From positions 1-62,954 of IMG/VR virus record IMGVR_UViG_3300021093_000072: a DNA stretch of 62,954 nucleotides. One strand, given 5' to 3'. The position numbers and the translations under genes were made by a program. This document shows, piece after piece, positions 1 through 62,954 of the stretch. Under the pieces are notes generated by a model. That model ran no database searches. It saw only the letters and a list, made by a program, of their open reading frames with translations, and was not told the origin of the DNA. Numbering within the stretch: position 1 is the stretch's first letter; each line of letters starts with the position of its first letter. The stretch is from a virus.

Positions 1-164
1 TGCGGACAAAACGGAACCGCCAGCGGATGCCCCCCAACTTCTGCCAGAATGAGGTGAAGGGTCTCATGTTCTCTTTTCTCGACAGGTGGTGGGATCCGGT
101 GGGGACTGTTACGGGGGGAATCTGGCATCGGGGTCGGATGGGGTCATTTTGGGGGGTCGCCGCC
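1..164. other. upstream region of the Cas12 gene, no supported gene
   Basis: I see no convincing gene here. A reading frame continuous with the Cas12 gene opens after an in-frame TGA at 56-58 and contains GTG codons at 86 and 89, but the extra residues are Gly/Ser-rich and look like translated non-coding DNA. The segment may hold the upstream part of the Cas12 promoter. Confidence 0.4.
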
Positions 165-178
165 CGTATAGTTTGGGC
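165..178 (+). promoter_or_regulatory. putative -10 element (TATAGT) directly before the Cas12 start
   Basis: CGTATAGTTTGGGC sits immediately before the ATG at 179. The hexamer TATAGT (167-172) would place the transcription start at about the A of that ATG, giving a leaderless mRNA. Nearly the same arrangement, CGTATACTTGGGC then ATG, precedes the MoxR-like gene at 52442, and CGTATAATT precedes the SET-domain gene at 27870. No -35 consensus is evident. This is inference from sequence similarity only. Confidence 0.4.
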
Positions 179-2272
179 ATGGGTAGACATAAAAAGAAAA
201 TCATGGATGACCGCAGGCTCGGACGTCTGATTGCGGGGTTAGCTGGCGTGGAGTCACCCCGTGATGGTGGTGTGGTTGAGGTTTGGAACTCAGACCAGGG
301 TGCCCCGCCGGGCGCTGGGGAGACGACAAAGGAACGCCGGGCAAAAAATAAGAATTCTTCAGAACCACTTCACAAATCGATGATTCTGCCGATCCATCCG
401 GATGCAGCTGCGGTGAAATGTCTGCAAAACAGGGAGCTCGCATGCGCGCATGTCTACAAAACTGCGGTTGACCAGTTGAACCACCACTGCAACCTTGCAA
501 ATGGGTCCCAGGAGCGGCAGAATGTCCTGTACGCAGGGGCATCGGGTGTGTCGGGGGCCGCAAGAAAGGTTGAGGTTGACAGGTGGAAGGGGATGGTGAG
601 GCGCAGGAGAGAGGTTTCTGGGTTGATACGCACCGCACGGCTGGCGGGGGATGTGGAGGGGGTGGAAAAACTTGAGAGGGAGCGGACGAAAATTGACGAG
701 GGGTGCCGTCGGCTGGGGGATTCACTCTTCGGTGGGAAGGTGGGGGGTGGAGCGGGCGCGGACACGCCGCTCGCCGCCGCATTCGAAGAATTTCGCAAGA
801 GGTGGGGCTCGTACAAGGGGAATACACACTATTTCACCAGGGCGCTACTGCGTGGTAAACGTTGGTGTGAGGTCGAAGACCACGTGTGGGGCCTGCATGA
901 TGATGGGGCGGGTGGTGACATCCTCGACGGGTGGGTCGGAGCTCACCTCTCCCCAACAAATGTGTGCGAAATTGCAAAGGAGGTGGGTAAAAATTTCTCA
1001 AACGGCATCCGGAACAGCGGTCACGGAAACCGTTTCCGCCTGCGTCGGGGAGGACGCAGACATCGGTGCGGCACTGGCGACAGGACAACCTCTCTGAACG
1101 GTGGGAGGCTTGTTTTGATGAGTGATGGAACATTCTACCTCCTTGTGCGGAGGAGTGGTGCCAGCAGAAGGATCATCGGAGACCGGCCTGAGAATGTTCA
1201 CAGGATCAGGTGTTCCCTGAGGGATCCACGGCAGGACAAAGGAAGGCAGCGCGACGATCTGGTACACATCATCAGGGACAGGGAGGTTGTGAGCAGGGTG
1301 CGTGCGGTCATGCCAGTTTTTCATCGCGGGCTGTGGTATGTGCACATCCTCTACTCGTGCAGAAAGTTGCGTGACAGGGAAAATCTTCTCCCTGGATGCA
1401 CCGTTGGTGTTGATCTGGGTACTGAAACCGTCTCGGTAAACATTGTTGATGATTCGACTGGTCTCACTGTGTTCGCCGGAAAATTATCAACCGTTGAAGA
1501 GTGCAGAGGACGCGAGAGGCGGCTGCTGCGCCAACAAAAGAGGTTCAGCGAGGGGTGTCGTCTCCGAGCAACAGAGTTGGGGATCATCCGCGAAGGTGGT
1601 GCGTGGGGGGAGGGCAAACGCCTGCAGCGTAAGTTTTGGACCGCGAGAGTGAGAGATGTGCATCGCAGGATGAAGAGGACAGAGGGTCAGATCGTAGAGG
1701 CCAGAAAAAACCTCCGCAACAGGGTTGCAACCTTCATCGGCTGCATCGGCGGCCGTCTGTTTTCGGAGGGCGGAGATGTTGCGGGCTGGGCAAAAGACCA
1801 CGGACGCGGCGTGGAGCGCGGTTCTCCTGGGGCATTCAGAAACGCAATGTTCGTAGCTTCAAACAGATGCGGAAGGAGATCGATTGACCTGAGAAAAAAC
1901 CCCATGAAGGTTTCAGAGGGGCATCTGTATCTGGTTGATCAGAAAAAATACAGAGCAACTGGCACAGATATTTTTGAGAAGAACCCACGACGTGCGTATA
2001 CTAAGTTGGGGGCAGACGTGAGGGAAATTGTCAGGAACGGTGTGACCGTTGACAGAGACCTCTATGCTGCTCTCAATCTTTCTCATCCGAATATCGACGG
2101 TACAAAAATCAACAGGGATGCTGCAATGAGAGATTTCAAACACCTCTACTGCGGCACCGACCCAGCTTGTGATGATGGGGGTCGGCAGGGACCTGTCTTT
2201 GGAGGGGTCATCCCATTCGGGAAGTTCGTGCAGATCATAACCGATTTGCACAAAAAACTTTCTGCGGGGTGA
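179..2272 (+). CDS. cas12: compact Cas12-like (type V) CRISPR effector nuclease
   Basis: This is a predicted RNA-guided DNA nuclease that would use crRNAs from the adjacent array. Numbering the frame from the GTG at 86 (728 residues), RuvC-I is GVDLGTETVS with D443. The best RuvC-II candidate is RLFSEGGDVAGW with E561, and RuvC-III is VTVDRDLYAALNL with D656. The N-terminal half is basic and helical, with many Arg/Lys residues, as expected of REC/WED regions. I chose ATG 179 (697 aa) because a -10-like element abuts it; ATG 203 and ATG 380 are alternatives, and residues before about 99 look poorly constrained. The usual CxxC...CxxC zinc ribbon between RuvC-II and RuvC-III is missing: only C595 lies there. 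Size, phage context and lack of adaptation genes recall the phage-encoded CasPhi (Cas12j) and Cas-lambda families, but I cannot assign it to either. A lone TnpB is unlikely, given the length and the array. Confidence 0.83.
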   Translation: MGRHKKKIMDDRRLGRLIAGLAGVESPRDGGVVEVWNSDQGAPPGAGETTKERRAKNKNSSEPLHKSMILPIHPDAAAVKCLQNRELACAHVYKTAVDQLNHHCNLANGSQERQNVLYAGASGVSGAARKVEVDRWKGMVRRRREVSGLIRTARLAGDVEGVEKLERERTKIDEGCRRLGDSLFGGKVGGGAGADTPLAAAFEEFRKRWGSYKGNTHYFTRALLRGKRWCEVEDHVWGLHDDGAGGDILDGWVGAHLSPTNVCEIAKEVGKNFSNGIRNSGHGNRFRLRRGGRRHRCGTGDRTTSLNGGRLVLMSDGTFYLLVRRSGASRRIIGDRPENVHRIRCSLRDPRQDKGRQRDDLVHIIRDREVVSRVRAVMPVFHRGLWYVHILYSCRKLRDRENLLPGCTVGVDLGTETVSVNIVDDSTGLTVFAGKLSTVEECRGRERRLLRQQKRFSEGCRLRATELGIIREGGAWGEGKRLQRKFWTARVRDVHRRMKRTEGQIVEARKNLRNRVATFIGCIGGRLFSEGGDVAGWAKDHGRGVERGSPGAFRNAMFVASNRCGRRSIDLRKNPMKVSEGHLYLVDQKKYRATGTDIFEKNPRRAYTKLGADVREIVRNGVTVDRDLYAALNLSHPNIDGTKINRDAAMRDFKHLYCGTDPACDDGGRQGPVFGGVIPFGKFVQIITDLHKKLSAG

Positions 2273-2430
2273 TATCCAAAAATATCTCCTGAAATACCCA
2301 GCTCTGGAAACTGCACGCCTCTTTTTTGGATCCACATGTGGCATCAGCCTGTTTGTGGACAACATCAAATGGTTGCAGGGTAAAGCACTCCACACACGTG
2401 GGGTGCCCGCTAGGGCATTACCCATCTTAT
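2273..2430 (+). promoter_or_regulatory. CRISPR leader-like region with a hairpin
   Basis: This 158 bp segment separates the cas12 stop from the first repeat. It lies at the end where the repeats are most uniform, opposite the decayed end, so it is the expected leader and crRNA promoter side. An inverted repeat, GGGTGCCC / GGGCATTACCC (2401-2423, with a GCTA loop and a small bulge), lies just before repeat 1. I see no convincing -35/-10 pair. A short reading frame starting at 2326 only reads into the repeats and is not a gene. Confidence 0.45.
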
Positions 2431-3276
2431 GGTGTCAACACCCGTCAAAAAATGGGTGATCACAACCTCTCCCACCCCCAGGGCTCAAAGAGCTGTGGTG
2501 TCAACACCCGTCAAAAAATGGGTGATCACAACAGATGAGCTGGGAAAGATCTAGAAGTCTAGGGTGTCAACACCCGTCAAAAAATGGGTGATCACAACCG
2601 ATGAGTGTGCGGCAGCCATCACGATCAAGGTGTCAACACCCGTCAAAAAATGGGTGATCACAACTGAGTTGCCGAGTCTCAGGGTTGAGGTGTCAACACC
2701 CGTCAAAAAATGGGTGATCACAACCTCGTGTACCTGCATGATGCCTAGCTGGTGGTGTCAACACCCGTCAAAAAATGGGTGATCACAACCTACTTGGAGG
2801 TGCTCCAAATCTGTATTGGGTGTCAACACCCGTCAAAAAATGGGTTATCACAACCATGAACACCTGTCGGAACGCCAGCTAAAGGTGTCAACACCCGTCA
2901 AAAAATGGGTTATCACAACAGTATCTCTCTGAGCGCCAGCTCAAGGTGTCAACACTCGTCAAAAAAAATGGGTGATCACAACATTTGGGTAAAGGTGTCA
3001 ACACCCGTCAAAAAATGGGTGATCACAACTAAAAGCAAGAGCGGTTCCATCACGATCTAGGTGTCAACACCCGTCAAAAAATGGGTTATCACAACTAATA
3101 GCGGTTAGGTCGAGCGCGTGGGATGGTGTCAACACCCGTCAAAAAATGGGTTATCACAACTTCGCAAGAACCTCCTGGTTGAAGCTGCTTGGTGTCAACA
3201 CACGTCAAAAAATGGGTTATCACAACGGTCGCCAGTCCTCGGTGTCAACACCCGTCAAAAAATGGATCATCACAAC
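2431..3276 (+). CRISPR. CRISPR array: 14 repeats of 36 bp, 13 spacers
   Basis: Repeats begin GGTGTCAACACCCGTC and end ATGGGTGATCACAAC, and are 36 bp long. They start at 2431, 2497, 2563, 2629, 2689, 2754, 2819, 2884, 2945, 2994, 3060, 3125, 3191 and 3241. Internal pairing CACCC/GGGTG can form a hairpin near the repeat 3' half, the side expected to adjoin the spacer in a type V crRNA, which supports plus-strand transcription. Most spacers are 29-30 nt, but some are 24 (2665-2688), 25 (2920-2944), 11 (2983-2993) and 14 nt (3227-3240). The left six repeats read GTGATCACAAC; later ones mostly read GTTATCACAAC; the last reads GATCATCACAAC. Repeat 9 has a T substitution and two extra A. Decay at the right end marks it as leader-distal. 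No adaptation genes are present. Confidence 0.97.
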
Positions 3277-3280
3277 ATCA

Positions 3281-3334
3281 CAACTCAACACAAGTAAAAA
3301 AATGGATCATCACAACATCACAAATAATCACAAC
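3281..3334 (+). repeat. degenerate terminal CRISPR repeat copies
   Basis: After the last full repeat comes a decayed copy (3281-3316) that keeps AAATGGATCATCACAAC but has lost the 5' half. A shorter echo, ATCACAAATAATCACAAC, follows (3317-3334). They lack proper spacers and overlap the start of the next gene. Confidence 0.75.
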
Positions 3335-9043: not shown

Positions 9044-9681
<638 letters not shown>

Positions 9682-9688
9682 TATCCCC

Positions 9689-10348
9689 ATGCAAGTTCGT
9701 GGAACTGCGAGGCAAGACGGCTTGAGATCATCAGGGACAGATGTCCAGGTTCAATTCGGCTGGTACAGACAGGCCAAGCTTGGCACGCATGACGGGACAA
9801 CACTGGGGCTCTGTGGTCATAAGATTGCCATGGAAGATGGTTCGAATGCCACCCCTGAAGTCTTGATGAAGGCGTTGGAAGCTTGGAATACCGATGTTCG
9901 CTTGCAGGCAGCAGGCCACCGCAATGCAACCGCTGAAGTCTTGATGAAGGCGTTGGAAGATGGGTATGACGGTGTTCGAGTGGCTGCAGCATCCAACCGC
10001 AATGCAACCACTGAAGTGCTGATGAAGGCATCGAAAGATGATAGCACGACGGTTCGATGGACTGCAGCATGCCACCGCAATGCCACCGCTGGGATTAAGG
10101 CGGAATGGGTGATAAATGCTTTAAAAAGTCGTTCAAGGAGTGAAATATTCGCTTTCTTTCAAGATTTGGAATTTAATCGTGGTGAATTTATAATGAGTGA
10201 TTTGATCAGACTCATCATCACGGACAAGCGTGTTGATCTGGGTGGTCTGGATATGTTTCAGGAAGCTGTACAAGATTATAAGTTTGACAACCCCATAGTG
10301 AGCAGGATGATCAAGCGCGAAAAGATGTGGAGGAAGACAGATGCCTGA
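9689..10348 (+). CDS. leucine-rich-variant (LRV) repeat protein, copy 1
   Basis: It contains about four tandem units of about 26 residues with the pattern N-A-T[10 protein letters not shown] then VRxxAA(S/C)HRN, as in LRV/HEAT-like alpha solenoids that bind proteins or nucleic acids. The C-terminal tail, from KAEWVINALKSRS to the end, is almost the same in the next two genes. It begins with a GWYRQAKLGTHDG segment shared with copies 2 and 3. In those copies this follows MPDLV; here a 2-base difference puts the equivalent ATG (9741) out of frame, so ATG 9689 is assumed. It may be a decayed or re-started copy. Confidence 0.75.
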   Translation: MQVRGTARQDGLRSSGTDVQVQFGWYRQAKLGTHDGTTLGLCGHKIAMEDGSNATPEVLMKALEAWNTDVRLQAAGHRNATAEVLMKALEDGYDGVRVAAASNRNATTEVLMKASKDDSTTVRWTAACHRNATAGIKAEWVINALKSRSRSEIFAFFQDLEFNRGEFIMSDLIRLIITDKRVDLGGLDMFQEAVQDYKFDNPIVSRMIKREKMWRKTDA

Positions 10349-11294
10349 TCTTGTTGGCTGGTACAGACAGGCCAAGCTTGGCACACATGACGGAGAAACA
10401 CTTGGGCTCTGTGGTCATAAGATTGCTATGGAAGATGATCCAGCGCGATTACTTGCTGCAGCCGCATATTTGCCTCCCAATGCCTCCGAACATGTGCTCA
10501 TAGAGGCATTGGGACACGAAGATGAATATGTTCGCCGAAGGGCAGCATCCCACCGCAATGCCACTCCTGAAGTCTTGATGGAGGCGTTGGGAGATAGTGA
10601 TTTGTCGGTTCGCTTCCATGCAGCACGCAACTCCAATGCCACCACTGAAGTGCTGATGAAGGCATTGGAAGATGAGAGCGCAACGATTCGACAGACTACA
10701 GCAGAAATTCTGACTGCCACCCCTGAAGTCTTGATGAAGGCGTTGGAAGATAGGGATCCCCATGTTCGCTGGCAGGCAGCATTCAACCGCAGAGCAACCA
10801 CTGAAGTCCTGATGATGGCGTTGGAAGATATTGATTCGGGTATTCGAACGGCTGCAGCATCCAATCGCAATGCAACCGCTGAAGTCTTGATGAAGGCGTT
10901 GGAAGATATGAGTTACTGTGTTCAGGCGGCTGCAGCATCCAACCGCAATGCAACCACTGAAGTGCTGATGAAGGCGCTAAAAAATGAGCACATAAATATT
11001 CAAATGTCTGCAGTATACCACCCCAATACCACCGTTGGGATGAAGGCGGAATGGGTGATAAATGTTTTAAAAAGTCGTTCAGAGGGTGAATTGTACCTTT
11101 TCTTTCGACAGTTGGAATTTCATCGTGGTGAATTTATAATGAGTGATTTGATCAGACTCATCATCACGGACAAGCGTGTTGGTTTGGGTGAACTGGATCT
11201 GTTTCAGAAAGCTGTAAAAGAAAGTCATTTTGATAACCCCATAGTGAGCAGGATGATAGGGATCGAAAAGAATAAGAGGAAGACAGATGCCTGA
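10341..11294 (+). CDS. leucine-rich-variant (LRV) repeat protein, copy 2
   Basis: The 317 aa protein starts [18 protein letters not shown], then has about eight LRV-type units of about 26 residues ([13 protein letters not shown] and similar), then the conserved tail with [17 protein letters not shown] and [15 protein letters not shown]. The start codon lies inside the last codons of copy 1 (AGACAGATGCCTGA), an 8-base overlap. It is the longest copy. It may serve in binding or assembly; nothing shows an enzyme. Confidence 0.85.
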   Translation: MPDLVGWYRQAKLGTHDGETLGLCGHKIAMEDDPARLLAAAAYLPPNASEHVLIEALGHEDEYVRRRAASHRNATPEVLMEALGDSDLSVRFHAARNSNATTEVLMKALEDESATIRQTTAEILTATPEVLMKALEDRDPHVRWQAAFNRRATTEVLMMALEDIDSGIRTAAASNRNATAEVLMKALEDMSYCVQAAAASNRNATTEVLMKALKNEHINIQMSAVYHPNTTVGMKAEWVINVLKSRSEGELYLFFRQLEFHRGEFIMSDLIRLIITDKRVGLGELDLFQKAVKESHFDNPIVSRMIGIEKNKRKTDA

Positions 11295-12207
11295 TCTTGT
11301 TGGCTGGTACAGACAGGCCAAGTCTAGCACACATGGCCTCACTGGAGAGGAGAAGACCCCCCATTGGGAGGGACTGTCTCGTCAGGGATATAGGTTTCAT
11401 CACGCATCGGGTACACATGACGGGACAACACTGGGGCTCGGTGGTCATAAGATTGCCATGGAAGATGATCCGAATGCCACCCCTGAAGTCTTGATGAAGG
11501 CGTTGGAAGATACGGATTGGAGGGTTCGTGCGAACGCAGCAATCCACCCCAATGCAACCGCTGAAGTCTTGATGAAGGCGTTGGAAGATACGGATTGGAG
11601 GGTTCGTGCGAACGCAGCAATCCACCCCAATGCAACCGCTGAAGTCTTGATGAAGGCATTGGAAGATTTTACCGATCTTCCCTGGCAGGCAGCAAGCCAC
11701 CCCAATGCAACCGCTGAAGTCTTGATGAAGGCGTTGGGGAATGAGAGACCCCTTGTTCGAGAGGAGGCAGCAGGCCACCGCAATGCAACCGCTGAAGTCT
11801 TGATGAAGGCGTTGGAAGATGGGTATGACGGTGTTCGAGTGGCTGCAGCATCCAATCGCAATGCAACCACTGAAGTGCTGATGAAGGCATCGAAAGATAA
11901 GAGCATGAGGGTTCGATGGACTGCAGTACGCCACCCCAATGCCACCGTTGGGATGAAGGCGGAATGGGTGATAAATGTTTTAAAAAGTCGTTCAGAGGGT
12001 GAATTGTCCCTTTTCTTTCAAGATTTGGGATTTCATCGTGGTGAATTTATAATGAGTGATTTGATCAGACTCATCATCACGGACAAGCGTGTTGATCTGG
12101 GTGGTCTGGATATGTTTCAGAAAGCTTTAGAAGAAAGACATTTTGATAACCCCATAGTGAGCAGGATGATCAAGCGCGAAAAGATGTGGAGGAAGACAGA
12201 TGCCTGA
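11287..12207 (+). CDS. leucine-rich-variant (LRV) repeat protein, copy 3
   Basis: The 306 aa protein has the same N- and C-terminal blocks as copy 2. An insert of about 28 residues ([17 protein letters not shown] and following) splits the N-terminal block between AK and GTHDG. Two consecutive units (11495-11653) are identical at DNA level over most of their length, which shows recent unit duplication. The 8-base overlap at its end leads into the tail-spike gene, whose first bases, ATGCCTGAT, equal the start of copies 2 and 3. Confidence 0.85.
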
Positions 12208-53962: not shown

Positions 53963-55088
53963 ATCCATAGAAGATTTTGCCAACGCGCTTGCCATCCTCG
54001 AACTAAAATCGTCTGGTCTTGCTGCCATATGTCGCCACCTGCCGAAGTTTGCTGATGAAAGAATAAAGACAGCCTGTGTGATGATGGATGGAGATAGGTT
54101 GTCGTTACATATATGCCCCAAATTCTGGAAGGATCTAGATGTCGAGGGCAAGGCTTTCGTCTTGGCGCATGAGGCAATACATGTTGCCTTCTGCCACATG
54201 GCACGCGGCAAACATTTTCACCAGTCAGTCATGAATGTGGCAGCAGACGCAGTCACCAATAGCATGATCAAAGACATTTATAATATTTCACCCCCAAGTA
54301 ATCTTGCTGACAAAATAATTACCGGAGAATTAGTTGACGCATGTTGGGATGATTCTATGGAATCGATTATAGCAAAATTGACCACCAACATCTGCACATA
54401 CATCTTAAGTAACAACCCTTGGGCATCTGACCACCATTATTACGAGTTAGATGACATGTCTCTAGCCGTGGAAAAGTTGATTCGGTCACTACCAGAGAAT
54501 GCCCGCAAGGATCTCAAGTGGACGAGTGGCGGGACGATAGCCGAGACCCGCATCCTGCGGCACAAAAGTATGACAGCAGCCAAAAAGTTGCTGGACTATC
54601 TTCGCAGTGGCAGGCATGGCGTGGGAGAGCGACAGACATATTCATGGACCAAGGAGCCTCGCAGGTCATCTGACAATCTGCTCATACCATTCCAAGAAGA
54701 CTCCAAAAACAAGTCAAAGTGCAGGATCAACATGTACCTTGACAGTTCGAGAAGCATGGACTTCTTGGAAGAACAACTATTGGGTTGTGGCAGGGAGCTT
54801 CAGCGACGACGGGTGGAATGTAATCTTTTCTGGTTCGACACAGCAGTCTACAAGACCGCCACAAGGAGAACAATATATATTGGCGGCGGAGGAACCAATT
54901 TTGAAGTCGTCGTGAAGCACGCAGAAGAGCAGAAAAATATTGACCTCAACTTGGTGATAACCGACGGCATAGCGGCTTCTGTGAGGGTAAAAAACCCCTC
55001 CGAATGGCTATGGCTCATCACGAATGGAGGCTCAGGAGCGGCATTGAGGGGAATGCCGCAGAAACCCGTCAGTTGGGCCTTTCACTAG
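53952..55088 (+). CDS. VWA-like metallopeptidase-domain protein (DUF2201-like)
   Basis: In this protein of about 378 aa, the N-terminal half has LAHEAIHVAFCHMARG (HExxH, about residue 72) of the putative metallopeptidase domain. The C-terminal half has MYLDSSRSMDFLEEQ (MIDAS DxSxS, about residue 263) and GGGGTNFE, as in VWA-like domains. DUF2201 proteins of this design are partners of MoxR ATPases, as here. The exact client is unknown; metal-dependent binding or complex remodelling is expected. Confidence 0.82.
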   Translation, partial: SHSESIEDFANALAILELKSSGLAAICRHLPKFADERIKTACVMMDGDRLSLHICPKFWKDLDVEGKAFVLAHEAIHVAFCHMARGKHFHQSVMNVAADAVTNSMIKDIYNISPPSNLADKIITGELVDACWDDSMESIIAKLTTNICTYILSNNPWASDHHYYELDDMSLAVEKLIRSLPENARKDLKWTSGGTIAETRILRHKSMTAAKKLLDYLRSGRHGVGERQTYSWTKEPRRSSDNLLIPFQEDSKNKSKCRINMYLDSSRSMDFLEEQLLGCGRELQRRRVECNLFWFDTAVYKTATRRTIYIGGGGTNFEVVVKHAEEQKNIDLNLVITDGIAASVRVKNPSEWLWLITNGGSGAALRGMPQKPVSWAFH

Positions 55089-55452
55089 AAAGTCGTTTCT
55101 GCCCGTCTTTTTCAAGCACAAGCTCGACACGAGTTCTAAGTTCCGTAAATTTCAACTCCATATCCCTCAAACGAACCGAAATCTCCATCAGGAGGACTTT
55201 GTTAGCCTCCGAGGAGTCACTGACCTGTTTGGAGATCTCACCGTCCTTTGACTTCAGAGAGGCTATCTCGCCCTCTATGAAGCTAAGGCGCGTGTTGACT
55301 ACCTGCTGGGTTGTCCAAATGGTTGCCACAAAAACTCCTACCGTTATTATAATTGACCATATATTTTTTCCAGCCTGTGTGGCATGATTTATTGTTCCGA
55401 CCATTTCTGAAATATTCTCCCCGGACTGAACCCTAGAATTTTTTTTGGTCAT
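55069..55452 (-). CDS. membrane protein with coiled coil
   Basis: In this 127 aa protein, one hydrophobic segment (IWSIIITVGVFVATIWT, about residues 31-47) is followed by a heptad-rich helix (NTRLSFIEGEIASLKSKD; DMELKFTELRTRVELVL). This could be a membrane-anchored assembly or lysis-accessory protein, perhaps a spanin-like or holin-like factor. It converges on the VWA gene with a 20 bp overlap. Confidence 0.55.
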   Translation of the reverse strand: MTKKNSRVQSGENISEMVGTINHATQAGKNIWSIIITVGVFVATIWTTQQVVNTRLSFIEGEIASLKSKDGEISKQVSDSSEANKVLLMEISVRLRDMELKFTELRTRVELVLEKDGQKRLSSERPN

Positions 55453-55477: not shown

Positions 55478-55774
55478 CTAATCCTTTGATTTTTTAAATT
55501 TTCTGTATCCAAGTCTCCAGAGTGCATGTGAAATGTCTGTGGCAGCTTCTTCGATGGCTGTTTCGTCCATATCCCAAAAGCATGCATGAAGGAATTCATG
55601 TATCCAAACTTCGAGTTCTTCCTCATCGCTCAACTTGCTGTCAAGACATATTCTTTTATTAGGTTGACCTATGTCTGTACAATACCCACGAGTGTCCTTT
55701 GATATGGATCCAGACTTGGTCAATTTATAAACCTTGCCACGAAGATTTACTGACCTAACCTTCTTCTTGCTCAT
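55478..55774 (-). CDS. small zincin-like protein (HExxH)
   Basis: This protein of about 98 aa contains VWIHEFLHACFWDMDE, with HEFLH at about residue 66, like small predicted phage metallopeptidases. Start MSKKKVRS (55774) is preferred over the upstream ATG at 55795, which overlaps the giant gene. Only the motif supports activity. Confidence 0.55.
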   Translation of the reverse strand: MSKKKVRSVNLRGKVYKLTKSGSISKDTRGYCTDIGQPNKRICLDSKLSDEEELEVWIHEFLHACFWDMDETAIEEAATDISHALWRLGYRKFKKSKD

Positions 55775-55782
55775 TTTCTGCC

Positions 55783-58700
55783 TCACGAAGAACAAGTTGG
55801 GATCATCAATTTTCCGCTACATATGGATCCGCACCCTCCAAGGATGACGCCTCCAGTGTTGCAGCCACCACTATTTTCGCCATTACATAACTGGCACCTG
55901 GTGATGTCAGAGAAGCACATGGCGACAAGATCATGCGACTTGGAGCAGGAAACCACCCTGACTGTGTCGCTGCACACCATCCTCTCGTGCACTGACCCTG
56001 AAGCCAAGTCATATTCATAGGTTTTGTCGACGCCGCCAAATCCAAGCAAGAACCTCCCCTGCAGGCCACTGCCACATGCTTCACCGTCATGGGAAATCTT
56101 AGAAATATGTTTCAGGGCAGATCTGACCACTGGATCTGGTCCAACCATACCTATGGGTGCAACCATCACATCCTTCATACCGTCGATGTCTTGAGCATCT
56201 GAGATCCACACGCCAACACACGAAGCCCCGTCTCGTGCCCCAAGCAACTTCCAAGTCCCGCCAGAGCTACCAGCAAAAACAGAGCCGACTCCAAGTGGGT
56301 CGTCTCTCAAATTGCCAAGGTGCAAGACTCCGTCGCCTCGTGACGCAAGAACATGAACTGACCCGTCTCCCATGACCATGCAGACAACTGAATCGGGTGA
56401 CTCATCTGGAGTGGTCGACCAAACCTCTACAAATTGCCCTTGGCTATTGGAAAGCAGTATCGCTGACTGTTCTTCATTGACAAGGAGCAGCATCTCCATG
56501 CGCAAAGAGTTGAACACTGGAACATATGAGGTGATAGAACCCGAATTGGGAGAAAACGACATGTTCAGAGAGAAAGATTCTCCATCAAAACCAAAGCACA
56601 TGATCGTGCTGCCATCCGCAGACACAACAGGAACAACAGTCACGCCAGAAATTTCACACGGCTCATGGAACGAATGGTTGCCTGAAGGAGATTCTCCGAC
56701 ATACAATATGGAAGCTGGCGTTGTTGCGATCTGGTCTGTCTTGCGAGCTACTAGGTATATGCCCCTGACGCCATCTGCCTCCACGGCAATTGCCTGGAAA
56801 ACGGTTCCATTGTCCACAGACAGCCCAGACCAGAACACCTGCGAACCGAATGCGTCTAGGTGACAGCAGGGGACTGCACCGAAGTTTTCATACAGGATAA
56901 AGTGCTCGCGATCACCTGTGGAGCAGTTTTCTCTTGCACTGATAGAGCAGTTAATACACTCCGATTGGCACTCCGATGATGACCTACTCTCCACCAGCCC
57001 CCTCGCCGATTTGGGCAAGGATGCAAGATCGCATTTCGAAACAGCTTCACCGTTGAACTTGAAGAATTTCGTATAACCCGCTGTTCCAGAAATCCTGTTG
57101 ATTTGTGACATGTTCTGCTGGCTGACCTGAGACATATTGATGGTAAACCCATGCTCAGTCGTGTCAATATCTTTGCCTGCAGAGGTGCCCACATGGCATA
57201 TTATTCCATTTGCAACCACTGCAGTAGCGACATCAAGTTGCAGGAAAACAGAGATTGTCGGATCATCCGTGACCAGCACTGAACCAGCAGCAACGCCACG
57301 ACCATCAGACATCACCAATATGTTATCCTGCTTGATCATGGATGCAGATACAAACGCAAGCCTCTCATCCTTCCTTTGCACCAGGATGGGATGCTCTGGG
57401 CTGACGACTATAGACCCGCCAACCGTTGCCCTACCCTTCTCATAGCCAAGGGAAACCTGGGTCACGGAGGCATTGACCTTGCTAAACGACATTGGTGGAG
57501 CAGACCAGCCAGAAAGCAAATCAGTGAATGTGGGAGAAGATGAACCCCCTCCGCCAAAAACAACCCCTGCTACAACGTCCCCGTGAGCCAACTCCTCAAC
57601 CAGTCTCGTCGTGCCATCCCACATCAAGATGCGGGTGCCAACCGCAAAGCAGAGCATGCAGCATGTATTGCAGGACGGGGGACATAATGGATCTCCCGAA
57701 ACCCCGCAGCCGTCTGAAGAGTGTGCGCAAGACCTAATCACTGGTCTCCAGAAGTAGTGAGTGACACCGTCAATGTTGCACTGCCTCTCTAAAGACCATT
57801 CTGCACAGCCCATGTCTGCAGCATTAGAGAAGTTCGGTCGAAAATCAACCTGGCAAATCGTTTCGCCACCAGCGCAACAACTTTCAGCATAGGCAAGCTC
57901 CCTCCCGTCGCGACTGTGGACAACACCAGCGGTTGCTGGTGGCGGAGTTACGGAGGTTGTCACTGCATAGGAACATCTAAACCATGGATCTTCTGACATG
58001 TCAGCACAAGACGCCATGGTTAATTGCCGTGTGCAACTCGATATATCTGGAGAGAATTCAATATCATATTGAGTGGCGGTGGCATTTTGGCTTGAGTCAC
58101 ATCCCGCAAAAATGAACACTCTAATTAATTTGAACCACTCATCTTCAGTGTTGTCGATTTCAACATGATTTTCGGTGATGGTCAGAACCACTTTTTTCTG
58201 TTGCGTCTGGGCGACACAACCTGTGTCATGAATGATGGAGTTTTCTGGTGCAGAAATTTCGTCATTCCCCAAGAATGGGTGAGGTGGGGTGTTAAATGGT
58301 CTCTGTGCTAGATAAAATTCAGAAGGAGTCTCGGGGCATGCATCTTCACCTTCCACTAACTCACCGTAGTCGGGGAAGGGGTGAGAGCGAAGCAGATTGG
58401 TCTCATCTTGGTCTTGCCCCTTAGAGGCAAGCACCATGATCCTATCCCGTAATGAGTAAGTCACGTAACTCATGCAGATGCTCAGTGCTCGTTCCCCCGG
58501 ATCACCCAAAAACTCTAATCCATCTAAACTGAGCGCATAAACCCTCAAACATGCGCCTGATGTGGATATGCTGCTGCTGCCGCTACCAGAGCATTGACCT
58601 TGCGCATTGCACATAGATAATGGTTGGCCAGTATATGGAGGGGGTTGACCCGGGACCCCAGGAGGGCCTGATTGGCCGCTACCAGTAGGAGTAGAACAAG

Positions 58701-60885
58701 GACATGGTACACCGCCACCGCCACCGGTTGAGCTTGAAGAAGAGTCACTAGACGAGCTGCTGGATGACGAAGAGTCACCAGACGAGCTGCTGGATGACGA
58801 AGAGTCACTAGACGAGCTGCTGCTGGAGCTACTTCCATCAGGGCAGTTGGACCCCTCGCACTCACAGAAATCGCAGTTGCATCCCACACATGATATATTG
58901 AGGGAGAAGAAACGGCTAGCAGATTCTCCCCACAACCCTTCGCAGTTGGGATATATCACCACCCTCAATTTGTATGCCCATGGATCCTCATCGTCCGTGA
59001 TGACCATGTTCTCATCAATGTAGAGACATGTCTTCATGCTGACAGATGAATCGAGCCAGTACCATTGTCCCGAAGCTTGATTATAGAATGTGTTGACACA
59101 ACCTGTTTCTATGATCACCTCTTGAGCAGCAAGCATTTGTGCACAGCCACCAATTGGTGGCTGGCTGGAAGAACTGGAAGAACTGGAAGAACTGGAAGAA
59201 CTAGAAGAACTAGAAGAACTAGAAGAACTGGAAGAACTGGAAGAACTGGAAGAACTAGATGGACCAGATGTGGTGGATGACGACTGACCAGATGTGGTTG
59301 ATGACGACGAACCAGATGTGGTTGATGATCCTGAAGTCGTTGAGCTTGATGGTTCTTGGCAGCATTCAGGTCTGGCCTCACAGTTCGTGCAGCCTGAAGT
59401 GCATGGGCAATCTGGTCTGCATGGGTCAACACCGGTGGCGTTGCACAAACCGCCTGCGTCACATTCTGGATCGTCACAGCACCACGGGTCAAAGAAGCAA
59501 GGACTATCTGGGTTGCAGCATTCAGGACAAAGGCAGCACAACGAATTGGGGAACAAATCGCAAGGGTCTACCCCACCACCACACAAATCTGGGTGGTCGC
59601 AGCAAGGGTCATACGTGGGCGAATCGGGATCGCTGAACGACGAGCAAAAGCAGCGTGCTCTTCTCGAGTCGCAGCCTGCTCCCCTCAAAGCTGCCAGACA
59701 AGCACTACTGCAAGGGTCACCGTTTGGAGGGTTGCATGCGTCAGGCGGGAAACACTGTGCACAAGCACAATCATCACAACTTGTGCAATCAAGGTCGGGT
59801 GGTGGATTATCTCCGCAACATTCGCAGGGGCAAATGGCACTCGGGCCTGGTCCGCCCATCAGGAATGCAGGAACATCTCCTTTAGGATGCTCGACAGGAG
59901 CGAATCTTCCGTTCAGGGCTGTCTGAATATAAAGGGATTGATTTCTATATATGGAATCTCCGGGAGAAGAATTTGTGAATGTGAATGTGTTTGGAGAATC
60001 GGGTATATCAACTTCGCCGAACCCGCACAGCGGTAGCTTGCCTCCTGGGGTCTTCGTCTTGTATATGACGGCCCGAGACCTGCCTGCTGTTGCCGCCCAA
60101 TCTATGCACAACCTGCCGTATCGCTTACCACCTGAAGTTTGGCAGGTGAGAGCCCCCCTGATGTCCATGATGATGTCAACTGGGCGGTTTGGGACAGGCT
60201 GAGTCAGCTGTAGACTGGTAAAGCTCATGCTGAAATCACAATTACCTACTCCTGACGAGCACTGCGAGAAGGGTATCTGAATGCTCATCTTCGGGTGTAT
60301 AAACCTCATCAGGTTGATCAGCTTGAAGAAGGAGTTCCCCCACCTACCAACGGCACCCGCATATGCACGCATGCTGATATATCCATCGTCAGCAAAGTTT
60401 GGAGGATTCAGCAGTCTGTCGGCATCGGCCTGATCGTAGAGGCCACCCGCAATGAGGCTAGGAAAGTTGCCAAGCCAGTCATCTGTGGCAACAGCATCGG
60501 CATTGAAAGACGATGGAACCCTGAAGAATCCTGCGGATGACCCCCCGCTGCCATTGCATGGGATCTTACCATGACTTTCAAACAATCCACTGCTGTGGCC
60601 TGGCAGAAGTTGCAAGGCGCAGTCTCTGCAGTTTTCCATGACTTCCAACATGGCCCCAACGGAATCAGGGGTGATTTCAATGAGAGGTATGAATTCAGAA
60701 GACGGGTCATCCACAGATTGGAGATATCCAAGCCTGACTGCCTCCCTACGCAGCCTGATTTGCTCTCTGCAGTATAAAAGCAACTCCTTGATACCTTCTG
60801 CGCCCAAGCTGCTAGGGTCAAACTCGTTTTGAGTTTTTATAGATAGCTGGTAGCCAGTAGGATCAAATGGGTTGCCTGCGCTCAT
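55783..60885 (-). CDS. giant poly-Ser/Cys-rich virion-type protein with degenerate Hint domain
   Basis: This 1700 aa protein has three apparent parts. Residues 1-350 are beta-rich. A Cys-rich block (CCECCGD-like, residues 350-520) is followed by poly-Ser linkers (about 542-577 and 685-717) and more Cys-rich modules. A Hint domain lies at about 1078-1232: CFAVGTRILMWDGTTRLVEE (block A, with C1 after CML), VVSPEHPILV (block B) and ANGIICHVG at the end, where the intein His-Asn junction is not kept. Residues 1290-1680 repeat a beta-propeller-like pattern. It probably is a tail fibre or surface protein; the Hint could still cleave. Overlaps the next gene by four bases. Confidence 0.75.
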   Translation of the reverse strand: MSAGNPFDPTGYQLSIKTQNEFDPSSLGAEGIKELLLYCREQIRLRREAVRLGYLQSVDDPSSEFIPLIEITPDSVGAMLEVMENCRDCALQLLPGHSSGLFESHGKIPCNGSGGSSAGFFRVPSSFNADAVATDDWLGNFPSLIAGGLYDQADADRLLNPPNFADDGYISMRAYAGAVGRWGNSFFKLINLMRFIHPKMSIQIPFSQCSSGVGNCDFSMSFTSLQLTQPVPNRPVDIIMDIRGALTCQTSGGKRYGRLCIDWAATAGRSRAVIYKTKTPGGKLPLCGFGEVDIPDSPNTFTFTNSSPGDSIYRNQSLYIQTALNGRFAPVEHPKGDVPAFLMGGPGPSAICPCECCGDNPPPDLDCTSCDDCACAQCFPPDACNPPNGDPCSSACLAALRGAGCDSRRARCFCSSFSDPDSPTYDPCCDHPDLCGGGVDPCDLFPNSLCCLCPECCNPDSPCFFDPWCCDDPECDAGGLCNATGVDPCRPDCPCTSGCTNCEARPECCQEPSSSTTSGSSTTSGSSSSTTSGQSSSTTSGPSSSSSSSSSSSSSSSSSSSSSSSSSSSSSSSSQPPIGGCAQMLAAQEVIIETGCVNTFYNQASGQWYWLDSSVSMKTCLYIDENMVITDDEDPWAYKLRVVIYPNCEGLWGESASRFFSLNISCVGCNCDFCECEGSNCPDGSSSSSSSSSDSSSSSSSSGDSSSSSSSSSDSSSSSTGGGGGVPCPCSTPTGSGQSGPPGVPGQPPPYTGQPLSMCNAQGQCSGSGSSSISTSGACLRVYALSLDGLEFLGDPGERALSICMSYVTYSLRDRIMVLASKGQDQDETNLLRSHPFPDYGELVEGEDACPETPSEFYLAQRPFNTPPHPFLGNDEISAPENSIIHDTGCVAQTQQKKVVLTITENHVEIDNTEDEWFKLIRVFIFAGCDSSQNATATQYDIEFSPDISSCTRQLTMASCADMSEDPWFRCSYAVTTSVTPPPATAGVVHSRDGRELAYAESCCAGGETICQVDFRPNFSNAADMGCAEWSLERQCNIDGVTHYFWRPVIRSCAHSSDGCGVSGDPLCPPSCNTCCMLCFAVGTRILMWDGTTRLVEELAHGDVVAGVVFGGGGSSSPTFTDLLSGWSAPPMSFSKVNASVTQVSLGYEKGRATVGGSIVVSPEHPILVQRKDERLAFVSASMIKQDNILVMSDGRGVAAGSVLVTDDPTISVFLQLDVATAVVANGIICHVGTSAGKDIDTTEHGFTINMSQVSQQNMSQINRISGTAGYTKFFKFNGEAVSKCDLASLPKSARGLVESRSSSECQSECINCSISARENCSTGDREHFILYENFGAVPCCHLDAFGSQVFWSGLSVDNGTVFQAIAVEADGVRGIYLVARKTDQIATTPASILYVGESPSGNHSFHEPCEISGVTVVPVVSADGSTIMCFGFDGESFSLNMSFSPNSGSITSYVPVFNSLRMEMLLLVNEEQSAILLSNSQGQFVEVWSTTPDESPDSVVCMVMGDGSVHVLASRGDGVLHLGNLRDDPLGVGSVFAGSSGGTWKLLGARDGASCVGVWISDAQDIDGMKDVMVAPIGMVGPDPVVRSALKHISKISHDGEACGSGLQGRFLLGFGGVDKTYEYDLASGSVHERMVCSDTVRVVSCSKSHDLVAMCFSDITRCQLCNGENSGGCNTGGVILGGCGSICSGKLMIPTCSS

Positions 60886-62954
60886 ACATTGACCTTAATT
60901 TTTGATCTGAGCATGGCAAATCTTTCGATAGCTGATATTTCATCAACTCCAGATGCGTTACTGAAACCAACCGCACCGCCAAAATCGAAACCAGAGTCGA
61001 TAAAGCCTGCATCGGAATTGTGCACCAAATATCCATCAGCCAGATAGAGATTGCCGCCAACAGTCGACAGTGATATGGTGGCAACCGTTTCATCTGATTT
61101 TGCGATTAAATATACCGTCTGCCATGTGCCTCCAGCAGTCATGACCATGTCGCCAACCTCGATTCGCTGTACGCTCCTGTAGGCAATATTCCCGTCCCTC
61201 ATGACGGGCATAGCATGTTCAGCCGTCAACTTGAGCACGCCATTTATTACAAAATATGAGGTCTCAAAGCCTGCTGCAACCTCTGACACCACCACGAGAT
61301 GATTCACAAATGTACTGTCTTTGGGCCAATTGTCCCTGATTTCAGTGGATGTTATTGGGATGTCAAGATCCTTAGATGGGGACACGGGGCGCTTTGACAT
61401 GAGGATTTCGCCAGGCCTCACCTCCTCAATTGGCTTGTATCCTTTAGTTGTGCTGACGACTGTCCCGACCGCCAGGCAGCAGGATGGGGCACACACCACC
61501 TCATCCCTCAAGGAGGAACATATGGGTGAAGAAAAATTGGGGATTATTTGATAACTTTCTCTGTCTGCACCGCCAACACTGGTGGGCGCACAGCATGGAT
61601 TTTCTGCTATATTTCTTACTAGCGTGTAGCAGCCGTTTTCCACAATCATTTTTGCCACATCGTGAGGAATTTCCACCGATGTGTTGCCGCAGGACGGACA
61701 ATCAACAGATATTGATTCCTTGAAGGCTTGACTGTCCATGGCCGACAGGATGGACTCCTGAGAATCTATTTTAGAACCTGAAGCCAAATCAAAATGCAGT
61801 GTTCCTGATGGACATGATGGTATGCATGCTCCACCAATCAATGTGTCAAATCTGCCACCTGATGATGTCGCATAATCTCCAGTCGACAACTCCTGGCCAC
61901 CACCTAGATTTTCTTTGGTTGGCCCTGTAACGGTCGGGCAATCGTTGGAGGTCACAGATCCGTTGCTCTGCTGCGTGGATGATGAAAATTCTTCTAGAGT
62001 GACAGTTTCCACCTTGATCTTGATGGCTGATTGGCTGAATCCATCGATGCATGCACATCCAGGGAACGCCACGAATCGGAGGGCGTAATCCCAAATTTGT
62101 GCTTGCACCCCCGGTGGCATGAATGGAGACAAGCTCGGTTGGCCTGGTATTCTTCTCCAAGCTCTAGCGGCTACACTCGTTGAAATGAGCGACTCCTCTT
62201 GTCCCGAGCCAAGAGTGTCATCAGACCCATCTCCGTCCCGAAGCCATCCAGAAGCGTTTTCATTTGGCGAAAAATCAATAGTTTTGCACGAGAAAGATCC
62301 TGGCGTAACCAGGAAATAATAGACATGGGTTGATGGTGGAATTGGTCCGCTTGTGCTACCACCTCTGAGGCTGACACATCCACTGTCAAACAATATCGCA
62401 TCATTGCCAACATGAACTGGCCCAAGATGAAGATCAGGGTTGCTGCCGGGCACAGACCAGCATGCAATGTCTAGAGGAAGTGCGGTTCTTGGATGCAAGA
62501 AGTTGTCGTTGGCTTCAGCCACCTGTATGTCGGCATTTCTATCTCCGTATAATCCCCCCTGTACAGCGGTGCTGTAGCCGGTGAAATATGTCTGGAGGCC
62601 TTTTGGAAAAGAGCCACCATCAGTGAGCTGAGATGGCAGCGGCCTCATGCGGGGAGAATTTGTGGTTGAACCCATTGGTCTGAAAGGACGCATGCTCTGC
62701 CAAATTGAATCGTTTTGCCAATACCCTATCATCTGGTAGTAACTGCTGCTGGAAGAAGAAGAATAACTGCTAGAAGAAGAAGAACTGCTGCTTGAAGAAC
62801 TAGAATAACTAGAACTGCTGCTTGAAGAAGAAGAACTAGAAGAACTAGAAGAACTAGAAGAACTAGAAGAACTAGAACTGCTGCTTGAAGAAGATGATGA
62901 ACTGCTACCAGAAGAACTAGAAGAACTAGAACTGCTGCCGGAAGAACTAGAAGA
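60882..62954 (-). CDS. poly-Ser protein with intein-like Hint domain, 5' end outside the window
   Basis: The frame is open to the right edge; the first roughly 70 codons visible are poly-Ser with Gly/Tyr, so the true start lies beyond the window. From the ATG at 62732 the remainder is 616 aa: YWQNDSIWQSMRPF, beta-rich blocks, then a Hint domain at about residues 417-572. It has CLAVGTVVSTTKGYKPIEEV (C1, block A), LKLTAEHAMPVM (TxxH, block B) and LYLADGYLVHN followed by S. These are the residues needed for protein splicing in a mini-intein of about 155 residues. A short DAGFIDSGFDFGG tail follows. It is probably a tail fibre or surface protein. Confidence 0.78.
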   Translation of the reverse strand, partial: SSSSSGSSSSSSSSSGSSSSSSSSSSSSSSSSSSSSSSSSSSSSSSSSSYSSSSSSSSSSSSSYSSSSSSSYYQMIGYWQNDSIWQSMRPFRPMGSTTNSPRMRPLPSQLTDGGSFPKGLQTYFTGYSTAVQGGLYGDRNADIQVAEANDNFLHPRTALPLDIACWSVPGSNPDLHLGPVHVGNDAILFDSGCVSLRGGSTSGPIPPSTHVYYFLVTPGSFSCKTIDFSPNENASGWLRDGDGSDDTLGSGQEESLISTSVAARAWRRIPGQPSLSPFMPPGVQAQIWDYALRFVAFPGCACIDGFSQSAIKIKVETVTLEEFSSSTQQSNGSVTSNDCPTVTGPTKENLGGGQELSTGDYATSSGGRFDTLIGGACIPSCPSGTLHFDLASGSKIDSQESILSAMDSQAFKESISVDCPSCGNTSVEIPHDVAKMIVENGCYTLVRNIAENPCCAPTSVGGADRESYQIIPNFSSPICSSLRDEVVCAPSCCLAVGTVVSTTKGYKPIEEVRPGEILMSKRPVSPSKDLDIPITSTEIRDNWPKDSTFVNHLVVVSEVAAGFETSYFVINGVLKLTAEHAMPVMRDGNIAYRSVQRIEVGDMVMTAGGTWQTVYLIAKSDETVATISLSTVGGNLYLADGYLVHNSDAGFIDSGFDFGGAVGFSNASGVDEISAIERFAMLRSKIKVNV
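62742..62954 (-). repeat. Ser-codon microsatellite (poly-Ser linker)
   Basis: The coding strand is a mix of TCT, AGT, AGC and TCA triplets encoding Ser with occasional Gly or Tyr. Similar tracts occur at about 59160-59265 and 58735-58830 in the adjacent gene. Confidence 0.9.

What the first reader, a model, noticed from the sequence alone, without database searches (positions are those of the whole stretch)
60990..61490. Mini-intein candidate in a poly-Ser virion-type protein
A 155-residue Hint domain keeps C1, TxxH and a C-terminal HN followed by Ser, the set needed for protein splicing. Splicing would join the Ser-linked N part to a short C-terminal tail; cleavage would release it.
Basis: partly seen in the sequence, partly recalled or inferred. 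Interest (0 to 1): 0.7.

Follow-up and report, generated by a model that had tools for sequence, protein, structure and literature searches.

The report
C-terminal Hint domain on phage protein
The end of this phage protein is a self-processing (intein-type) domain from a widespread but apparently undescribed family that phages carry at the ends of flexible, fibre-like proteins, where it probably cuts itself off and may weld the protein to a lysine rather than splice like an ordinary intein.

Summary
ORF 60882-62954(-) ends in a 154-residue Hint domain (Cys493-Asn646, 61017-61478) with C1, TAEH, HN and Ser+1. A phage-Hint profile scores it at 61 bits; the best of 2,000 shuffles scores 5.7. AlphaFold gives a Hint fold; bacterial intein-like (BIL) domains are among the best PDB matches. 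The intein reading is only partly supported. Pattern scans and phage-record searches show a family of C-terminal Hints on collagen-like, Gly/Ser/Pro-linker and other tail-type phage proteins. C1 and HN are nearly always kept and the C-tail is usually 2-27 aa. The +1 residue is mostly not a nucleophile and changes from T to V between orthologues. So classical splicing is not the shared function, although this member could chemically do it. New: all 25 other tails in the discovery set hold a lysine (12.9 expected), and 6/6 held-out tails agree. BIL2 of Tetrahymena, a top structural match, joins its upstream domain to a lysine by an isopeptide bond. Best mechanism: autocleavage through a Cys1 thioester, with the upstream protein released or passed to an amine. 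The next gene carries a second Hint lacking the terminal Asn. No activity or virion location is shown.

The parts
61017..61478 (-). Hint domain of P0001, Cys493-Asn646 (154 aa): C1, TAEH, HN
60885..61016 (-). 44-residue C-tail after HN, starting Ser647 (+1), lysines at +39 and +41; model shows a low-confidence helix
61479..62738 (-). upstream part of P0001 (residues 73-492), Cys-rich towards the Hint; no known family above cut-off
62739..62954 (-). poly-Ser stretch (residues 1-72) cut by the contig end; short imperfect DNA repeats
55783..60885 (-). P0002, 1700 aa, next gene, start overlaps the P0001 stop (ATGA); poly-Ser linkers and Cys-rich parts
57190..57651 (-). second Hint domain in P0002 (Cys1079-Val1232): C1 and SPEH kept, terminal Asn replaced by Val

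Best explanation
Shown: P0001 ends in an intact Hint domain that belongs to a family of C-terminal Hint modules on phage linker-rich, mostly tail-type proteins; BIL domains are its best sequence-profile match and among its best fold matches. Inferred: the domain is active. Cys493 turns the bond to the upstream poly-Ser/Cys-rich protein into a thioester, and Asn646 cyclisation cuts off the C-tail. The upstream protein is then freed, or passed to an amine (a lysine in its own tail or in a partner protein, as in BIL2), or to Ser+1 in this member. The product would be a mature virion-type protein without the Hint.
For: Invariant or nearly invariant columns over 26 Hints at 20-30% identity to P0001 include Cys1, Thr/Glu/His of block B and the final His-Asn. 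49 of 50 pattern hits in IMG/VR give a Hint match with HN 2-27 aa before the stop, although the pattern covered only block B. Genes sit in tail clusters of Erwinia, Yersinia and NCTB phages or beside collagen-like tail fibre genes. Fold: 2LWY Foldseek E 1.6e-8; BIL2 6Y75 Z 18.6, 1.7 A over 138 residues. All 25 non-window tails of the discovery set hold Lys, 12.9 expected; one tail per lineage p about 2e-7 (n=14), held-out tails 6/6, p about 0.001. BIL2 forms a Lys isopeptide bond (PMC8616854).
Against: No biochemical data. P0001 itself has Ser+1, so ordinary splicing is possible. The lysine pattern was noticed after the fact and the tails are partly related by descent; in P0001 (44-aa tail) a lysine is expected anyway. 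Two related Hints end with no tail at all (second copy in L138, and L140). P0001 has no close relative, so constraint on its own residues is untested.
Confidence: 0.6

Rival explanations
1. A true class 1 mini-intein: Cys493 thioester, transfer to Ser647, Asn646 cyclisation, leaving the upstream protein joined to the 44-residue tail by a normal peptide bond.
For: C1, TxxH, HN and Ser+1 all present; mini-inteins such as Ssp DnaB score within 1 Z unit of BIL2; unlike most relatives the C-tail is long enough to be a real product part.
Against: +1 is Cys/Ser/Thr in none of 17 IMG/VR clusters and changes T to V between orthologues; no inteinless homologue found; relatives have the domain as a C-terminal module.
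Confidence: 0.25
2. Cleavage only: the Hint frees itself and the tail, giving the upstream protein a defined free C-terminus.
For: A-type BILs mainly cleave (PMC7664689; PMC7765530); tails are short and not conserved in sequence.
Against: Does not explain why every short tail holds a lysine.
Confidence: 0.3
3. A folded but inactive Hint kept as a structural C-terminal cap or trimerisation module.
For: Neighbouring P0002 lost the terminal Asn yet keeps the fold; some other copies are degenerate.
Against: The residues conserved across 26 divergent members include all the catalytic ones.
Confidence: 0.12

Closest known systems
PHROG 38766 (Erwinia/Yersinia/Dickeya jumbo phage 'virion structural protein', collagen-like)
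   Same: C-terminal Hint of the same sequence family (25 of 26 aligned members match); linker-rich upstream part; tail gene cluster
   Different: Upstream part is collagen-like, not poly-Ser/Cys-rich; tail about 10 aa, not 44; +1 Thr or Val, not Ser
BIL domain of Clostridium thermocellum (2LWY) and BIL2 of Tetrahymena BUBL1 (6Y75, 6TMM)
   Same: Best profile match (2LWY) and top fold matches; same C1/TxxH/HN core; BIL2 transfers its upstream domain to a lysine (PMC8616854)
   Different: Cellular proteins; BILs lack the +1 nucleophile that P0001 has; about 15-22% identity in the structural alignment
Class 1 mini-inteins (gp41-1, Ssp DnaB, Mtu RecA)
   Same: Fold, catalytic residues, Ser+1
   Different: Inserted in conserved enzymes with inteinless homologues (established knowledge); here a C-terminal module of a protein without known relatives
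Hedgehog autoprocessing domain (1AT0)
   Same: C-terminal Hint using Cys1 thioester chemistry; P0002 resembles it in lacking the terminal Asn and having a further C-terminal region
   Different: No evidence here for a sterol- or other adduct-binding region

Membership tests
Hint (Hedgehog/intein) superfamily | Hint fold and blocks A, B, F, G | tested here: met
Class 1 intein | Cys/Ser at position 1, block B TxxH, terminal HN, Cys/Ser/Thr at +1 | tested here: met
   all in P0001, but +1 is not conserved in relatives
Class 1 intein | Insertion within a conserved protein that has inteinless homologues | tested here: inconclusive
   No homologue of either flank of P0001 found; relatives carry the domain at the C-terminus
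Class 1 intein | Protein splicing activity | not testable with these tools
   needs expression or mass spectrometry
A-type bacterial intein-like (BIL) domain | Hint with conserved C-terminal His-Asn in non-conserved proteins | tested here: met
   definition from PMC7765530
A-type bacterial intein-like (BIL) domain | No nucleophile at +1 | tested here: not met
   P0001 has Ser647; the feature is met by 17 of 17 IMG/VR clusters. P0001 is therefore called BIL-like and not filed as a BIL
PHROG 38766 | Hint part of the profile | tested here: met
   E 2.2e-6, profile 319-470 of 478
PHROG 38766 | Collagen-like N-terminal part | tested here: not met
   P0001 aligns only from residue 447/476 on; upstream is poly-Ser/Cys-rich
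Virion structural protein | Present in particles | not testable with these tools
   No proteome of this virus; PHROG label is annotation; the literature searches gave no virion proteome of a relative

The most novel reading that the evidence does not exclude
Phage C-terminal Hint domains are self-contained, ATP-independent isopeptide ligases that weld fibre-like virion proteins to lysines of their own tail or of partner proteins; tandem Hint genes such as P0001 (complete) and P0002 (no Asn) are two parts of one cross-linking system.
Probability: 0.28. Interest if true: 0.85.

Novelty: new variant of a known kind. Interest (0 to 1): 0.58.

Why it matters
If active, these domains mean that many phages mature or covalently link long flexible tail-type proteins with built-in intein chemistry, a maturation route not described in the open papers searched here. 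The lysine in the tails makes an isopeptide mechanism directly testable, and the domains could serve as new protein-ligation tools.

Tried and rejected
Close relatives of P0001, P0002 and the window's ATPase gene were sought in IMG/VR by peptide patterns: none found. P0002 in INPHARED: no match. Plasmids: no match. An alignment of six divergent Hints was too variable for the pattern search. Hits L009 and L010 turned out to be ordinary inteins in a methylase-like and a helicase-like protein and were left out. A DNA pattern for the exact P0001 C-junction found nothing. Shared upstream repeats between P0001 and P0002 are only weakly supported (2 of 300 shuffles reach the score), while a repeat within P0002 is clear (0 of 300). 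Direct phmmer of P0001's Hint against PDB gave nothing significant; the family profile did. Literature on Hint domains in phage tails: the open papers found mention inteins or Hint domains in terminase and ribonucleotide reductase genes only. The clusters with long C-exteins (L086-L097, L088/L098) are uninformative for the lysine test because long tails nearly always hold lysine.

Full report
What is there. The window is the whole of one virus record of 62,954 bases. The ORF at 60882-62954 on the minus strand runs off the contig end inside a poly-Ser tract, so the protein's N-terminus is not known; the DNA there is an imperfect short repeat, a likely cause of the assembly break. Residues Cys493-Asn646 form a 154-residue domain with TAEH at 577-580, HN at 645-646 and Ser at +1, followed by 44 residues. 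The start codon of the next gene (P0002, 1700 aa) overlaps the stop codon (ATGA), so the two are probably translated together.

Chance. A profile made only from Hint domains of other phages scores this ORF at 61 bits and P0002 at 38 bits, while the best of 2,000 shuffles of the region scores 5.7 bits. Pfam Hint_2 and PHROG 38766 give matching weak hits for P0001, and Pfam and an intein-containing NCBIfam model do so for P0002. AlphaFold2 with 26 family members gives a core at pLDDT mostly above 90. Foldseek places 2LWY, a bacterial intein-like domain, first (E 1.6e-8). VIA-align gives BIL2 (6Y75) Z 18.6, 1.7 A over 138 residues, tied within about 1 unit with Ssp DnaB and Mtu RecA mini-inteins, so the fold alone does not separate BIL from intein.

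The family. Tblastn found the domain in tail clusters of Erwinia jumbo phages, phage NCTB and Alcaligenes phage Afa-NA1, at the C-terminus: HN, then 3-13 residues. A degenerate DNA pattern covering only block B (NG..K.T.EHP) returned 50 stretches of IMG/VR; 49 gave a Hint match, all with HN 2-27 residues before the stop. After clustering at 85% identity, the 17 representative clusters have Hint lengths of 151-171 aa, Cys at position 1 and HN, with +1 = V, A, I, L or K, never Cys, Ser or Thr. Upstream parts include collagen-like stretches, Pro/Thr- or Gly-rich linkers and repeats that look to me like BACON domains (own reading, not tested). A second pattern that cannot overlap the first gave a cluster with Ser/Gly linkers on both sides of the Hint and C-exteins of 116-130 aa, and others followed by about 100 aa. 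P0001, with poly-Ser upstream and a 44-aa tail, lies between these. Invariant or near-invariant columns over 26 Hints include Cys1, T/E/H of block B and the final HN; P0002 is the one that lost the Asn.

Fixed module or insertion. In the Erwinia phages the next two genes share the start of the Hint protein, by alignment scores above all 300 shuffles, but end after their collagen part without a Hint. This looks like a domain added at an end, not an intein inserted in a conserved site.

Splicing or not. Between genes in the same gene order, an Erwinia phage reads HN-TDIVAKAEKN and Yersinia phage fHe-Yen9-02 reads HN-VDLVSKAEKN. The +1 nucleophile is therefore dispensable, whereas Cys1, HN and a tail lysine are kept. 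That argues against class 1 splicing as the shared function. P0001 has Ser+1, so it could still splice.

The lysine. All 25 non-window tails of the discovery set hold at least one Lys, against 12.9 expected from C-termini of the same lengths in 190 control ORFs; Val is the next most enriched (20 against 11.6) and Arg is not enriched. One tail per lineage gives p about 2e-7 for 14 lineages, if they are independent. This was seen after the fact, so I looked at tails not used to notice it: second Hint genes in two of the same phages, huge phage LR756508, fHe-Yen9-02, a Desulfatibacillum MAG protein, and L085. All six have Lys (p about 0.001, or 0.0045 without the two that have near relatives in the discovery set). 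Two further copies have no tail at all. For P0001 the lysines lie at +39 and +41 of a long tail and prove nothing on their own. In Tetrahymena BIL2, a lysine takes the upstream ubiquitin-like domain by an isopeptide bond (PMC8616854).

Mechanism. Shown: domain, residues, family, conservation. Inferred: N-S acyl shift at Cys493, Asn646 cyclisation, and release of the upstream protein or its transfer to an amine. My split over outcomes is cleavage only 0.30, amine (lysine) transfer 0.28, splicing at Ser+1 0.25, inactive 0.12, remainder other. P0002 can at most do the first step (Cys1, SPEH, no Asn) and keeps a further C-terminal region, which resembles the layout of Hedgehog; its model has the same fold. 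Several other phages also carry more than one Hint gene or copy (NCTB, G009, G010, G011, G014), so a joint role is worth testing.

Limits. No particle proteome or activity exists here for this virus; 'virion' is an annotation label for the PHROG and an inference from gene order in relatives. The open papers found describe Hint or intein domains in phage enzymes such as terminase; most subscription papers are not covered, so an earlier description cannot be excluded.

Noticed in passing
window 86-3330: A 728-aa TnpB/Cas12-like protein (NCBIfam TnpB 2.8e-5, PHROG transposase 1.1e-6, PADLOC Cas12u3 only 0.017) lies beside about 14-15 copies of a ~35-base repeat (TCAACACCCGTCAAAAAATGGGTGATCACAAC core), mostly at 60-66 base spacing: a likely phage CRISPR array.
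   Followed up: partly
window 55478-55795 (-): 105-aa protein with an HEFLH zinc-peptidase-like motif directly after P0002, followed by a small protein with one hydrophobic segment at 55069-55452.
   Followed up: no
window 9593-12207 (+): Three tandem paralogues with HEAT-like repeats ([11 protein letters not shown]) and a shared segment (GWYRQAK..GTHDG).
   Followed up: no
L005:2810-3271: Phage NCTB has a stand-alone Hint-like ORF (153 aa) ending VHNKVD that lacks the block B His, next to two full C-terminal Hint proteins.
   Followed up: partly
L140:1518-2852 and L138:7236-7940: Degenerate or tail-less Hints: one protein with Hint-like halves ending exactly at HN, and one ending CHQ.
   Followed up: partly
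L032:5455-6381: A lipoprotein-like ORF in a Desulfatibacillum MAG carries a C-terminal Hint ending HN-TGGGGGGK, so the module also occurs in a bacterial contig.
   Followed up: partly
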